Origin: a virus
Reading direction: 5' to 3' (one strand)
DNA: 64,000 bases
Virus record (IMG/VR): IMGVR_UViG_3300023179_000070
Span: 18,053-82,052 of that record
Each line of letters opens with the position of its first letter. Within the stretch, counting starts at the first letter, position 1. Below are positions 35,110 to 56,227 of the stretch, in pieces. Below the pieces are notes generated by a model. That model saw only the letters and a program-made list of their open reading frames with translations, did not search any database and was not told the origin of the DNA. A program made the position numbers and the translations under genes.

Positions 35110-35174
35110 ATAAAATTATATATAATATAAATATAATTGTCTAATAAAAATGCAGACACAGGGATTCGTTTACT

Positions 35175-35562
35175 TGGACCCGAGAGGAATTGAACCTCTG
35201 TCTTTTAAAAATCTAAATTAAAATACTACAAGTTTAGTTCTTTTTGTTTTTAGCTTTATATAGATAAAGAACAAACATACTTAGCGATTTTATTTTTAAT
35301 ACTTAATATTAATAGAATAAAAAAACTATTAATAATAAGACATCTAATTCCGCAACTATCCAATAGATGTGTCAAGGTAGTCACGCTGTAGAACTTAGGC
35401 TACAGAAGCGGTCATCTCAACAAGAGGAACTCTTGCAGAGATATGACCTTTATATTTTGCTGTTTTGGCAGTTAATATAATTGAAACTTTTTAAGGAGTC
35501 CTCGATTCAACCTCCACTTGCATTTCAATTTATTTTCTTAAAATCGAAACCAGTACGGGCCC
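35175..35562 (-). ncRNA. ssrA: Transfer-messenger RNA (tmRNA)
   Basis: 388 nt. The 5' end GGGCCCG (35562-35556) pairs with CGGGTCC (35182-35176), including the G3-U70 wobble that marks alanyl-tRNA and tmRNA; the discriminator is A (35175). A 5-bp T arm with a TTCAATT loop lies at 35199-35183. The usual 5' motif TACTGGTTTCGA is at 35555-35544. The tag frame runs 35469-35398, starting AKTAKYKG and ending MTASVA, then TAA at 35397-35395. CCA is not encoded. It rescues stalled ribosomes and tags unfinished proteins. Confidence 0.88.
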
Positions 35563-41544: not shown

Positions 41545-42654
41545 TTATTTTCCATGAGCGAATCCTTCATACATGCTATTTGGGCTATTTCTAACAGCTT
41601 GTATGGTATTATTCCATAAACCACCGCGCATATCTTGTAAATTCCTGAAACCAAGATAACTCATAGAGCTTCTCAAACCATTAGTAAAATCATATACAAT
41701 ATCCTCAATAGATTTATTTTCAATAATTGGAATCAAAGTATTATCTCCTTCGACAAATAAATTCTTTTTGGTTCCATCATATAAATCATAATCTTCTACA
41801 ACATCTTGGCTAGCCATTCCTCTGTATTTAGCAAATCTTTTACCATCAATTTCAATAATATTTTCATCGTCTACAACATCAGACAGTCCAGCGAAAATTC
41901 TACCACAAATAACAGCATCGCATCCACTAGCGATAGCTTTTACTAAGTCTTTTGGATATCTAATGCCACCATCAGCCAGAATACTTGGTCTATGAGATGG
42001 GTTAGGTTTGTCTTGTTTAAATAAATCAACTTGAGAAAGTTCCCAATTCCTCACAGCCTTCCAAGCGTAATAGTTTCCAGTTAGACTTGGACATCCAATT
42101 CCAGTTTTAACTTGAGTTAAGCACATAGAACCTGGACCAATCAAATGTCTAAATCCGTCTGATTTAAGATTAGCTAATCTATAAACGCTTTCTTTCGTTA
42201 AAGTATTACCAACTATAACATCTTGTGAAAATCCAGCAGTTTTATACCATCTTAAAAAATCTTCTACGTTTTTAGCTAAACCATTAGCTGTATCTAAAAA
42301 GTAAACATTAGTAAAAGTACTAGTAGCTCTAATTCTTTCTTCTGCATCTTTTAAACCAATAGCAGTAACACAAAAATCACTTTCATTTTTAATAATTTTA
42401 GCTTTAGCTCTCTGATCATCAACACTCATAAATCTATGCAAAACTCCAGCTGCACCAAGTTTATTCATTTTAATACAAGATTTAACAGATGATACTGTAT
42501 CCATAGGAGAAAGAATAATTGGAATTTTGATACTACAATTTCTTGAAATTTTAGTAGTAGTATCTACTTCTTTTCTTGAGGTAATATTTGAAAAATTTGG
42601 AAGTAATGAAATATCATCATAACTTAAAGCTTCTTTGAATTCTTGTTTTTGCAT
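41545..42654 (-). CDS. IMP dehydrogenase-like enzyme without CBS domains
   Basis: 369 aa, the length of an IMPDH barrel without the CBS pair. Active-site loop IGPGSMCLTQVKTGIGCPS with the catalytic Cys near residue 178; ADGGIRYPKDLVKAI binds phosphate; KYRGMASQDVV is the flap motif (YRGM is typical of IMPDH, GMP reductase has FYGM); LHRFMS near residue 70 also favours IMPDH. It would oxidise IMP to XMP toward GTP. GMP reductase is the alternative. It is the first gene of the minus-strand pair and has its own promoter. Confidence 0.78.
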   Translation of the reverse strand: MQKQEFKEALSYDDISLLPNFSNITSRKEVDTTTKISRNCSIKIPIILSPMDTVSSVKSCIKMNKLGAAGVLHRFMSVDDQRAKAKIIKNESDFCVTAIGLKDAEERIRATSTFTNVYFLDTANGLAKNVEDFLRWYKTAGFSQDVIVGNTLTKESVYRLANLKSDGFRHLIGPGSMCLTQVKTGIGCPSLTGNYYAWKAVRNWELSQVDLFKQDKPNPSHRPSILADGGIRYPKDLVKAIASGCDAVICGRIFAGLSDVVDDENIIEIDGKRFAKYRGMASQDVVEDYDLYDGTKKNLFVEGDNTLIPIIENKSIEDIVYDFTNGLRSSMSYLGFRNLQDMRGGLWNNTIQAVRNSPNSMYEGFAHGK

Positions 42655-42732: not shown

Positions 42733-42804
42733 ATGTTTCAAACAGTTGCATGTATCATAATGGGTATTATAATATCTTTATATTGGCATTTTTCTACAAA
42801 ATGA
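42733..42804 (+). CDS. Membrane microprotein, 23 aa
   Basis: ATG at 42733, TGA at 42802-42804. The product (MFQTVACIIMGIIISLYWHF then STK) is one hydrophobic helix with a short polar end. The stop overlaps the ATG of dCMP deaminase (ATGA), so the two are translationally coupled. The start was predicted only by the class A rule of 35 nt from the -35 box, which this gene fits exactly. Role unknown. Confidence 0.6.
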   Translation: MFQTVACIIMGIIISLYWHFSTK

Positions 42805-43214
42805 ATAATAGAATATCATTTATTGAAGCAGCAATTCATACTGCTCAGATTTGGTCGAATAGATCAGAAGATCCATATAAAAAAGTTGGAGTATGTATCT
42901 TAAATAAAGATGGAAGAGTATTATCTGTTGGATATAATGGTCTTTTACCAAAATTTAATATTAAACAAGATTTTTTTAATGACAGAGATAATAGAAGAAA
43001 ATATATGATTCACGCCGAAATCAATGCATTATCTCTTATAAAAAGAAAAGATGATCCTTATTTATTAGCTTCTACATTATTACCTTGCTCAAATTGTGCA
43101 ACAAATATTGTTGCATATGGAGTTAAAAGTGTGGTATACTCAGAAGAATATGAAAAGGATTCTACAGCAAAAGAAATATTTAAATTTTATAATATAGAAT
43201 TAATTAAAATATGA
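42801..43214 (+). CDS. dCMP deaminase
   Basis: 137 aa from the ATG at 42801, which is coupled to the upstream microprotein; a longer frame from 42750 has no support. Zinc site HAEINAL near residue 74 and LPCSNCATNI near residue 95 give the His, Glu and two Cys of the cytidine-deaminase fold; SNRSEDPYKKVG precedes. It turns dCMP into dUMP, the substrate of ThyX at 19370-20026. Confidence 0.88.
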   Translation: MNNRISFIEAAIHTAQIWSNRSEDPYKKVGVCILNKDGRVLSVGYNGLLPKFNIKQDFFNDRDNRRKYMIHAEINALSLIKRKDDPYLLASTLLPCSNCATNIVAYGVKSVVYSEEYEKDSTAKEIFKFYNIELIKI

Positions 43215-51043: not shown

Positions 51044-52036
51044 ATGGTTAATCATATAGATATTATATTTGGTTTAGCTTGGGGAGACGAAGGAAAGGGC
51101 AAAATAAGTAATGCTATTAGCAAAAATTATGATATTATTTGTCGTTGGAATGGTGGGCCAAATGCAGGTCATACAGTCTATATTAATGATAAAAAATATA
51201 AAACTCATATTATTCCTTGTGGAGTATTTCAAAATAAGCTTAGCATCATTGGTCCAAATTGTGTTATCAATATTGATAAATTTTTTGATGAAATAGATTA
51301 TCTTAAAAGAGAAGGATTTGATACTTCTTTAATTAAAGTAAGTCCAAAAGCACATATTATTACTGAAAGACATATTCAATATGATCTTAAATTTTTAAAA
51401 CCAAAATTAGGTACAACTGGACAGGGAATTGCACCAGCATATGCAGATAAAGCCCTAAGAATAGGTAAATTAGCAGGAAATTATTTAGATAAACAATATA
51501 TTTGGAATGGCGAACTCTATGGTAATATTCTATGTGAAGGCGCACAAAGTTTTTGGTTAGATTTAAATTATGGAGATTATCCTTATGTTACAAGTAGTGA
51601 AACTTTGCCTTATTCTGCTTGTTCATTAGGTTTTAGTCCTAAAAAAATTAGAGATATTATTGGTGTAGCTAAAATTTATGATACAAAAAGTGGAGTAGAT
51701 CCATTATTTCCAGAATCACTTTGGCAAGATGATGAATTAAATATGCTAATAGAAATTGGTCAAGAGTTTGGTTCTACAACTGGTAGAAAAAGGATAGTTA
51801 ATTGGCTAAATTTAAATAAACTAATAGACGCAATTAAAATTTCTGGAGTCAATAAATTAATAATAAATAAATGCGATATTCTTGAAAAAATACATACTTA
51901 TAAATTATTCCAAAATAATAATCTTTATAAATTTAACACATTACAAGCAATGGAATCTTTTATAAGATCTCAAATAAATCACATATTAAATGAGTATATT
52001 GAAATAATTTTCTCTGGAAATAAATCTTTAATTTAA
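51044..52036 (+). CDS. Adenylosuccinate synthetase-like (PurA/PurZ0-like)
   Basis: 330 aa, about 100 residues shorter than PurA of cells. WGDEGKGK near residue 12 keeps the catalytic Asp (PurZ of Z-genome phages has Ser here). NAGHTVYI is the IMP-site His loop; GTTGQGIAPAYADKA the IMP loop; CEGAQSFWLDLNYGDYPYVTSS and FGSTTGRKRIVNWL the GTP-side loops. It would make adenylosuccinate from IMP, aspartate and GTP. The shortening and the variant STRVG-like loop (DTKSGVD) are unusual, so a change of substrate toward dGMP cannot be excluded. Confidence 0.82.
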   Translation: MVNHIDIIFGLAWGDEGKGKISNAISKNYDIICRWNGGPNAGHTVYINDKKYKTHIIPCGVFQNKLSIIGPNCVINIDKFFDEIDYLKREGFDTSLIKVSPKAHIITERHIQYDLKFLKPKLGTTGQGIAPAYADKALRIGKLAGNYLDKQYIWNGELYGNILCEGAQSFWLDLNYGDYPYVTSSETLPYSACSLGFSPKKIRDIIGVAKIYDTKSGVDPLFPESLWQDDELNMLIEIGQEFGSTTGRKRIVNWLNLNKLIDAIKISGVNKLIINKCDILEKIHTYKLFQNNNLYKFNTLQAMESFIRSQINHILNEYIEIIFSGNKSLI

Positions 52037-54359: not shown

Positions 54360-54431
54360 TGCCTAGTAACTCAATGGTAGAGTGTTTCCCTGTTAAGGAA
54401 GTGGTTCTAGGTTCAAATCCTAGCTAGGCAG
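54360..54431 (+). tRNA. tRNA-Asn (GUU)
   Basis: 72 nt. Acceptor TGCCTAG (54360-54366) with CTAGGCA (54424-54430), D stem ACTC/GAGT, anticodon stem TTTCC/GGAAG with loop CTGTTAA (anticodon 54392-54394), T arm CTAGG/CCTAG. Discriminator G. No CCA encoded. Confidence 0.92.
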
Positions 54432-54437
54432 TATTTT

Positions 54438-54953
54438 ATGAAATATAAAAATAATAATTGTAAATTTTGTAAAAGATTAATTTTAAATAAAGGCTCACTA
54501 GTTTCTCATATGCTATGTTGTATTAAAAATAAAAATAGAGTTAAAAGAATAAGATCCTCAAAAGCTGGTAGAAAGAAAGGGTCAATCGCTTGGAATAAAA
54601 ATAAAAAATTTCCAAATAAAATTTTAAATCGAATACTATTCCAAATAAAATCTGGAGAATATAAACAATTTTGTGAAGCAGTAATAAGAAGAACAGTTAA
54701 ACAATATTTAATATATAAATATGGTAATAAATGCATGATCTGTGGTTTAACAGAATGGCAAAATCAAAAAATACCATTGGTATGTGATCACATTGATGGA
54801 AATCCACAAAATATCAACATAACAAACTTTAGAGTTATTTGTAATAATTGTGATTCATTATTGCCGACATTTAAAGGAAAAAATAAAGGCAAAGGTAGGA
54901 AAGCGAGATATTCTGGAACGATGGCTGAGAGGTCTAAAGCAGAAGCCTACTAA
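54438..54953 (+). CDS. HNH endonuclease overlapping tRNA-Ser
   Basis: 171 aa. Zinc ribbon at the N-terminus (CKFCKRLI, then HMLCC). HNH-like core near residues 95-140 (CMICGLTEW, then VCDHIDGNPQNINITNFRVICNNC). Its last 13 codons run into tRNA-Ser and its stop codon overlaps the anticodon loop. It starts 6 nt after tRNA-Asn. A free-standing homing enzyme between two tRNA genes. Confidence 0.75.
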   Translation: MKYKNNNCKFCKRLILNKGSLVSHMLCCIKNKNRVKRIRSSKAGRKKGSIAWNKNKKFPNKILNRILFQIKSGEYKQFCEAVIRRTVKQYLIYKYGNKCMICGLTEWQNQKIPLVCDHIDGNPQNINITNFRVICNNCDSLLPTFKGKNKGKGRKARYSGTMAERSKAEAY

Positions 54954-55002
54954 GCTTCCGATGGTTTAATATCATCCGTAGGTTCGAATCCTACTCGTTC
55001 CG
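54915..55002 (+). tRNA. tRNA-Ser with ACU anticodon
   Basis: 88 nt, type II. Acceptor GGAACGA (54915-54921) with TCGTTCC (54995-55001), discriminator G. Anticodon stem GAAGC/GCTTC with loop CTACTAA (54947-54953), anticodon ACT at 54949-54951. Long variable arm GATG/CATC and T arm GTAGG/CCTAC. The usual Ser tRNA for AGC/AGU has GCT, so position 34 is A, not G. The 3' end meets the stop of the leucine-rich-repeat gene. Confidence 0.88.
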
Positions 55003-55003
55003 A

Positions 55004-56227
55004 TTAATTTCTTTTTTTGGTAGTTAATTTTCCAGTTCCACCACTTTTTATTATATTATCAGACCAAAGAATTACAGATTTTCCAGCTAAAGTTGAACCC
55101 CAGCCAGTAACAAAATTCTTCTTACGATAAAATCTTAAATTTGCAGGAGTATTTTGAAAAGAATTTGATTGAACAGAAGGGGCATTTCCAAAAAAATTAA
55201 TTCTAGTTAAACTTGTACAATTATTAAACGCAAATCCACCAAGTGTTAATAAATTTTTAGGAAGGGTTATGTTAGTCAATTTTGAACATGATTCAAAAAA
55301 TCTATTACCTAAAGACGTTATTCCATCTGGAATATTAATTTCTTTTAAATTACTACAACCTTGAAAGCAGTTATTTCCCATACTTACTAAGTTTTTAGGT
55401 AAACTTATACTAATTAAATTTGTACAACTTTGAAAAGCTATGTCAGATATAGCTAGAACAGTTTCTGGCACAATAAAATTATTTTGCGGTTTATTTGCTA
55501 AGTATTGAATCAAAGTAGTTATATTTTTATTATATATTACATTATCAATTGAGGAATAAGATGGATTTAAAGGATCAATTATAATAGTAGTTAAACTTGC
55601 GCATCCTTGAAAAGGTGCAGAACCGATAGTTGTAACGCTTGCTGGAATTGTTATACTAGTTAAATTTGTAAAACTAAAAGCTGAAGCTCCAATTGTAGTT
55701 AATGTATTTGGTAAAGATATACTATTTATTGGCGTACGAGTAAAAGCACCTGCCTCAATTATTGTTAAATTATTACTTAGAGTAATATTAGATAAAGTAG
55801 AACAAAGTTGAAATGCTTGACCATTAATAATCGTCAGACTATTCGGAAGAACAATATTATTTAATTGAACGCACCCATAAAAAGCCGAAAATCCAATTGA
55901 ATTTAAACTATTCCCAAATGATATCGTTGTTAAATTACAAGATTCAAAAGCATTATCTTCAATGATAGTGACTCCATTTCCAATCGTAGCCGTAGTTAAA
56001 CGACCACATTGACTAAAAGCCGAAATTCCAATAGAAGTAACATTATCTGGGATGATAATGTTAGATAATGCAGTAAAAGCGAAACAAAAAGATTCAATTC
56101 GAGTTACGGTATTGCCTATTGATACGCCAGTTAATATTTTACCAGAAACTCTACTACTGGAAGTAAGAACCGTATCCGAACTTATACTTGTAGTTCCATC
56201 ATTATAATAAAAAATTGTATCTGCCAT
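55004..56227 (-). CDS. BspA-like leucine-rich-repeat protein
   Basis: 407 aa. Residues 45-375 are about 14 repeats of 22-24 residues with the BspA/LRR_5 pattern (SIGISAFSQCGRL, TTATIGNGVT, NIVLPNSLTI). No signal peptide. The N-terminus begins MADTIFYYNDGTTSISS, and MADT also starts the 492-aa virion-like protein. The tail is basic. LRR proteins bind proteins or glycans. With the class B box this could be a virion or fibre protein that contacts the host. Confidence 0.78.
   Translation of the reverse strand: MADTIFYYNDGTTSISSDTVLTSSSRVSGKILTGVSIGNTVTRIESFCFAFTALSNIIIPDNVTSIGISAFSQCGRLTTATIGNGVTIIEDNAFESCNLTTISFGNSLNSIGFSAFYGCVQLNNIVLPNSLTIINGQAFQLCSTLSNITLSNNLTIIEAGAFTRTPINSISLPNTLTTIGASAFSFTNLTSITIPASVTTIGSAPFQGCASLTTIIIDPLNPSYSSIDNVIYNKNITTLIQYLANKPQNNFIVPETVLAISDIAFQSCTNLISISLPKNLVSMGNNCFQGCSNLKEINIPDGITSLGNRFFESCSKLTNITLPKNLLTLGGFAFNNCTSLTRINFFGNAPSVQSNSFQNTPANLRFYRKKNFVTGWGSTLAGKSVILWSDNIIKSGGTGKLTTKKRN

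What the first reader, a model, noticed from the sequence alone, without database searches (positions are those of the whole stretch)
54915..55002. Serine tRNA with an ACU anticodon
The type II tRNA has A34 instead of the usual G34. In bacteria A34 is normally found only in a few tRNAs with inosine made by TadA. ACU would read AGU best, which suits an AT-rich genome. Either A34 is left unmodified or the tRNA has a modified role. The HNH stop codon overlaps the anticodon loop, so a mutation could have been shaped by both.
Basis: partly seen in the sequence, partly recalled or inferred. Interest (0 to 1): 0.65.

Follow-up and report, generated by a model that had tools for sequence, protein, structure and literature searches.

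The report
Phage serine tRNA with forbidden anticodon
A freshwater-type phage and all of its tRNA-bearing relatives carry a serine tRNA whose anticodon (ACU) is described as absent from all life, most likely a dedicated reader of the AGU codon, and about one in five viral tRNAs of this class in a database sample has it.

Summary
In detail: window 54915-55002 (+) is an intact type II tRNA-Ser with anticodon ACU (A34 at 54949). It is no sequencing error. Of 79 related viral loci, 43 carry this tRNA and all read ACU, never GCU, while stems and variable arm vary. With one pattern that fits both anticodons, 25 of 120 AGY-serine tRNAs in viral contigs are ACU. In sampled bacterial phyla, ACU appeared only in the genomes chosen because they had it. 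Cultured phages of Salmonella, Klebsiella, Erwinia and Rhizobium have it too. A published review states that A34 is 'universally missing' from the Ser-Arg box. The best explanation is that A34 stays unmodified and the tRNA reads AGU by Watson-Crick pairing: the loop lacks the G36 that TadA needs, a published E. coli test of an ACU anticodon found no inosine and no AGC or AGA reading, invariant arginines in these phages use AGA, and viruses with ACU use more AGU per serine. The HNH overlap is irrelevant: only three loci have that ORF, A34 is in all. Host, charging and benefit are not shown.

The parts
54915..55002 (+). tRNA-Ser(ACU) gene, type II, no encoded CCA
   Evidence: ARAGORN; Rfam RF00005 56.8 bits
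54949..54951 (+). anticodon ACU (A34 C35 U36); loop 54947-54953 CUACUAA
   Evidence: invariant in all related loci that carry the tRNA
54960..54976 (+). long variable arm (serine-type)
   Evidence: alignment to RF00005
55002..55002 (+). discriminator base G73 (serine identity base, from general knowledge)
   Evidence: sequence
54360..54431 (+). tRNA-Asn(GUU); directly adjacent to tRNA-Ser(ACU) in relatives without the HNH ORF (L006, L008)
54438..54953 (+). HNH-type ORF inserted between tRNA-Asn and tRNA-Ser; reads into the tRNA and stops in the anticodon loop
   Evidence: weak partial IscB HNH match; only in window, L004, L033
42750..43214 (+). dCMP/cytidine deaminase-family protein; checked as a possible phage TadA and not one
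   Evidence: Pfam PF00383, NCBIfam ComEB-like; no TadA model hit

Best explanation
It is a genuine phage-encoded serine tRNA that the host SerRS charges through its long arm and G73. Its wobble base stays an unmodified adenosine, so it reads AGU by Watson-Crick pairing and reads AGC and AGA little or not at all. The host tRNA-Ser(GCU), which reads AGU only by G-U wobble, keeps AGC. The phage tRNA thus tops up decoding of AGU, the preferred AGY serine codon of this AT-rich genome (353 AGU to 116 AGC). Shown here: the gene, its conservation, its enrichment in viruses, the AGU usage, and AGA kept as arginine. Inferred: charging, unmodified A34 in the real host, and benefit to the phage.
For: Intact tRNA by two methods. 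A34 invariant in all 43 tRNA-bearing relatives while stem and arm sequences change; loop always YUACUAA. 25 of 120 viral AGY-Ser tRNAs are ACU; bacteria almost never. In the ACU loci other G34 tRNAs stay G34 (Asn 41/41, Tyr 18/18, Cys 16/16, Asp 22/25), so it is not a general loss of G34. GC-matched ACU viruses use more AGU per serine (0.40 v 0.24, p=4e-8; after dereplication 0.31 v 0.22, p=0.004), while Asn, Asp, Tyr, His, Cys and UCY boxes do not differ. AGA is the main codon at invariant Arg columns of PurA, NrdA and NrdB (1,139 cells) and no AGA or AGG stands in Ser columns, so the tRNA must not read AGA. Published: an ACU-anticodon tRNA in E. coli read AGU at 9.4%, AGC and AGA below detection, no inosine found (PMC11066159); TadA needs YUACGAA and single changes abolish or nearly abolish editing (PMC12255301). 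Five Patescibacteria genomes with this anticodon have no TadA match.
Against: No RNA data for this phage, and its host is unknown. The published decoding test used an archaeal tRNA-Tyr body, not tRNA-Ser. TadA specificity can widen (S. pyogenes edits tRNA-Leu AAG; PMC11472039). TTT/TTC also differs between the virus sets, so part of the codon signal may be lineage background, and AGT/AGC alone is borderline after dereplication (p=0.057). The AGU preference alone does not prove benefit.
Confidence: 0.68

Rival explanations
1. A34 is edited to inosine by a host TadA with relaxed specificity, so that one phage tRNA reads both AGU and AGC.
For: Most A34 tRNAs in nature are edited; TadA has widened its range in S. 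pyogenes (PMC11472039); the loop differs from the TadA motif at one base only.
Against: G36 is replaced by U36; the ACU anticodon was not edited in E. coli (PMC11066159); I34 could misread AGA, which codes invariant arginines here; some Patescibacteria without TadA use the same anticodon; the phage deaminase is not TadA.
Confidence: 0.08
2. A34 protects the tRNA from a host defence nuclease that recognises or cuts at the G34-bearing anticodon of tRNA-Ser(GCU), so that serine decoding survives a tRNA-cutting defence.
For: Phage tRNAs have been proposed to evade tRNA-targeting defences by anticodon-loop changes (PMC10264068); the change is specific to tRNA-Ser AGY.
Against: That paper treats tRNA-Ser(gct) as not targeted by known nucleases; no nuclease specific for GCU is known to me; it does not explain the link with AGU usage.
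Confidence: 0.15
3. A34 is neutral: since the host GCU tRNA reads AGC, a phage copy may drift to A34 without cost.
For: ACU forms arise sporadically in bacterial genomes, once next to a 99% identical GCU sequence elsewhere (L136/L350).
Against: Perfect conservation in the lineage while the rest of the tRNA varies; strong enrichment in viruses; other G34 tRNAs carried by the same phages do not drift.
Confidence: 0.12

Closest known systems
tRNA-Ser(GCU), the normal AGY-serine tRNA of bacteria and many phages
   Same: Type II body, G73, loop YU-N-CUAA, U36-A37
   Different: A34 in place of G34, so AGU is read by Watson-Crick pairing and AGC is expected to be lost
tRNA-Arg(ACG), the usual bacterial A34 tRNA, edited to ICG by TadA
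   Same: A34, C35 and the U33 context
   Different: U36 in place of G36; split codon box, where inosine would risk misreading AGA (Arg)
Mycoplasma tRNA-Thr(AGU) with authentic unmodified A34 (cited in PMC11066159)
   Same: Natural tRNA working with unmodified A34
   Different: Four-codon box in a cellular genome; here a split two-codon box in a phage
Phage tRNAs in general (codon compensation, or evasion of tRNA-cutting defences, PMC10264068)
   Same: Phage tRNA gene next to others, matching phage codon usage
   Different: Anticodon described as absent from all life

Membership tests
tRNA-Ser (type II tRNA, RF00005) | Cloverleaf scoring above the curated threshold | tested here: met
   56.8 bits v 29; ARAGORN
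tRNA-Ser (type II tRNA, RF00005) | Long variable arm and discriminator G73 | tested here: met
   17-nt arm 54960-54976, G at 55002
tRNA-Ser (type II tRNA, RF00005) | Charged with serine | not testable with these tools
   needs biochemistry
AGY-reading tRNA-Ser | C35-U36 followed by A37 | tested here: met
   loop CUACUAA, invariant YUACUAA in relatives
AGY-reading tRNA-Ser | G34 | tested here: not met
   A34 at 54949 and in all 43 tRNA-bearing relatives; it is a variant of the class
TadA substrate tRNA (I34) | Anticodon loop YUACGAA (UACG core) | tested here: not met
   YUACUAA; motif requirement from PMC12255301
TadA substrate tRNA (I34) | Inosine in the mature RNA | not testable with these tools
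   no RNA data
Codon-compensating phage tRNA | Cognate codon enriched in the phage | tested here: met
   window AGU:AGC 353:116; ACU viruses richer in AGU per serine, GC-matched and dereplicated p=0.004
Codon-compensating phage tRNA | Cognate codon poorly served in the host | not tested
   host unknown

The most novel reading that the evidence does not exclude
Viruses of bacteria have repeatedly evolved a natural, unmodified-A34 tRNA that breaks the rule that A34 is excluded from the Ser-Arg split box. This AGU-only tRNA lets AT-rich phages divide AGY decoding with the host (AGU by the phage tRNA, AGC by the host tRNA), and it is common across phage families rather than a curiosity of one lineage.
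Probability: 0.5. Interest if true: 0.72.

Novelty: new variant of a known kind. Interest (0 to 1): 0.6.

Why it matters
[quoted passage not shown] Here is a large natural set of candidates in viruses, including culturable phages of Salmonella, Klebsiella and Rhizobium. That makes two open questions directly testable: how unmodified A34 decodes in living cells, and why cells exclude it while phages keep it. It also gives a sharp test of the codon-compensation view of phage tRNAs, because the prediction is codon-specific (AGU up, AGC unchanged).

Tried and rejected
Sequencing error: rejected, A34 is in every tRNA-bearing relative. HNH-driven change: rejected, only window, L004 and L033 have the ORF. 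Phage-encoded TadA: the deaminase at 42750-43214 is of the dCMP/ComEB kind. AGA avoidance in ACU viruses: weak at first (p=0.004) but gone after dereplication (p=0.44). Co-occurrence with tRNA-Arg(UCU) as protection of AGA: by eye about equally common in both sets. First viral pattern scan found nothing because of a spacing mistake of mine (7 N in place of 6). Host identification by nearest named phage failed (no close DNA match; structural and polymerase proteins only about 30% identical). Number of origins: a tRNA tree gave a minimum of 19 changes over 213 rows, but an 88-nt tree is too weak to trust that number. Literature searches for tRNA-Ser(ACU) in phages found no report; absence in this library is not proof. 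One GenBank record (Rhizobium phage RHph_TM30) does annotate tRNA-Ser(act) without comment.

Full report
WHAT IS THERE. The window is bases 18053-82052 of an 82,052-base IMG/VR virus record. It encodes lambda-like tail proteins, ribonucleotide reductase, purine genes, a tmRNA and three tRNAs. The tRNA at 54915-55002(+) is found by ARAGORN with anticodon ACU and by Rfam at 56.8 bits over a gathering score of 29. Numbering from the alignment: acceptor 54915-54921/54995-55001, anticodon stem 54942-54946/54954-54958, loop CUACUAA 54947-54953, variable arm 54960-54976, G73 at 55002, no encoded CCA.

NOT AN ERROR. A search with the phage PurA protein gave 79 related viral loci. ARAGORN finds an AGY-type tRNA-Ser in 43 of them, always ACU and never GCU (tally), over several stem and variable-arm types. 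Loci without the tRNA are often fragments or carry other gene arrangements. The loop is always CUACUAA or UUACUAA.

THE HNH ORF. It sits between tRNA-Asn and tRNA-Ser in the window, L004 and L033 only; in L006 and L008 the two tRNAs abut. It is an insertion whose reading frame runs into the tRNA and ends at U36-A37-A38. As the ACUAA sequence is fixed in the tRNA anyway, the ORF did not create it. With G34 the codon would be Cys in place of Tyr and the stop would remain.

HOW COMMON. Of these 95 are GCU loci (L267-L361, checked) and the other 25 are loci already fetched by the ACU-only scan, so about 21% are ACU. The ACU-only scan of 84,980 bacterial and archaeal species genomes gave 65 stretches. 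In samples of phyla around three such genomes, the centre genome was the only ACU case: Pseudomonadota 213 of 299 genomes match the two-anticodon pattern and only the centre is ACU among the roughly 155 matches printed; Planctomycetota 55 of 149, only the centre; Patescibacteria, ACU pattern, 1 of 192, the centre. A34 in this box is therefore strongly enriched in viruses. Limits: one pattern, rows cut off, contigs from metagenomes.

CULTURED PHAGES. Salmonella phage Munch, Klebsiella phage fENko-Kae01, Erwinia phage Hallingskeid and Rhizobium phage RHph_TM30 have the ACU loop. Many other phages retrieved by similarity have GCU.

WHY UNMODIFIED A34. TadA needs YUACGAA in a stem-loop and loses activity, completely or nearly, on single changes (PMC12255301); here the loop is YUACUAA. 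In E. coli, an orthogonal tRNA with anticodon ACU read AGU at 9.4%, AGC and AGA below detection, AGG 0.36%, and only A was seen at position 34 (PMC11066159). In these phages AGA codes invariant arginines in PurA, NrdA and NrdB in 1,139 cells, and no AGA or AGG falls in serine columns, so a serine tRNA that read AGA would be harmful. Of sixteen bacterial genomes with the ACU tRNA that were tested, the five Patescibacteria G005-G009 have no TadA match and a sixth (G010) a weak one, while the others have it.

WHY IT MAY PAY. The window uses AGU three times as often as AGC (353 to 116). Between viral contigs with ACU and with GCU tRNAs, matched to GC 0.33-0.43, AGU per serine is 0.40 v 0.24 (p=4e-8), and 0.31 v 0.22 after keeping one locus per tRNA cluster (p=0.004). 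The U-ending share in Asn, Asp, Tyr, His, Cys and UCY boxes does not differ, but that of Phe does, so some lineage effect is likely. The change is specific: Asn, Tyr and Cys tRNAs of the same loci are all G34.

WHAT IS KNOWN. [quoted passage not shown] Another paper calls unmodified A34 tRNAs exceedingly rare (PMC11066159). I found no paper that reports tRNA-Ser(ACU) in phages. The tRNA family is old, the variant and its spread in viruses appear unreported, hence 'new variant of a known kind'.

VERDICT. The mechanism is well supported by published decoding data but not shown in this phage.

Noticed in passing
window 35174-35562 (-): tmRNA gene (RF00023, 105 bits) with an unusual predicted 24-residue tag AKTAKYKGHISARVPLVEMTASVA; near-identical tags recur in many related loci, near PurA.
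   Followed up: partly
window 54438-54953 (+), L004 13772-14245, L033 2715-3188: HNH-type ORF inserted exactly between two tRNA genes; its stop codon lies inside tRNA-Ser, so RNase P processing of the tRNA would leave a non-stop HNH mRNA in a phage that also encodes tmRNA.
   Followed up: partly
L033 3191-3279: tRNA-Ser beside the HNH ORF has a broken closing pair of the anticodon stem (C31-U39), with a 5' half like that of the window; possibly partial co-conversion by the endonuclease.
   Followed up: no
L105, L107, L109, L121, L124, L125 and other Patescibacteria loci: Patescibacteria contigs carry tRNA-Ser(ACU) close to tRNA-Ser(GCU) in genomes of about 0.8 Mb; five tested lack TadA.
   Followed up: partly
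L220, L222, L245 (tRNA-Asp AUC), L198 (tRNA-Phe AAA): Other A34 anticodons in two-codon boxes predicted in viral contigs; also held to be absent in bacteria.
   Followed up: no
L088, L116, L130, L132, L142, L145: Polynucleobacter isolates carry tRNA-Ser(ACU), in some next to tRNA-Gly(CCC) and tRNA-Thr(CGU), up to three copies in one genome.
   Followed up: no
window 51044-52036 (+) and 41545-42654 (-): Phage adenylosuccinate synthetase and an IMPDH/GMP reductase-family protein, both far below the equivalog cut-offs of NCBIfam; a possible altered purine pathway.
   Followed up: no
window 55004-56227 (-): Leucine-rich-repeat (BspA-like) surface protein directly downstream of the tRNA on the opposite strand.
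   Followed up: no
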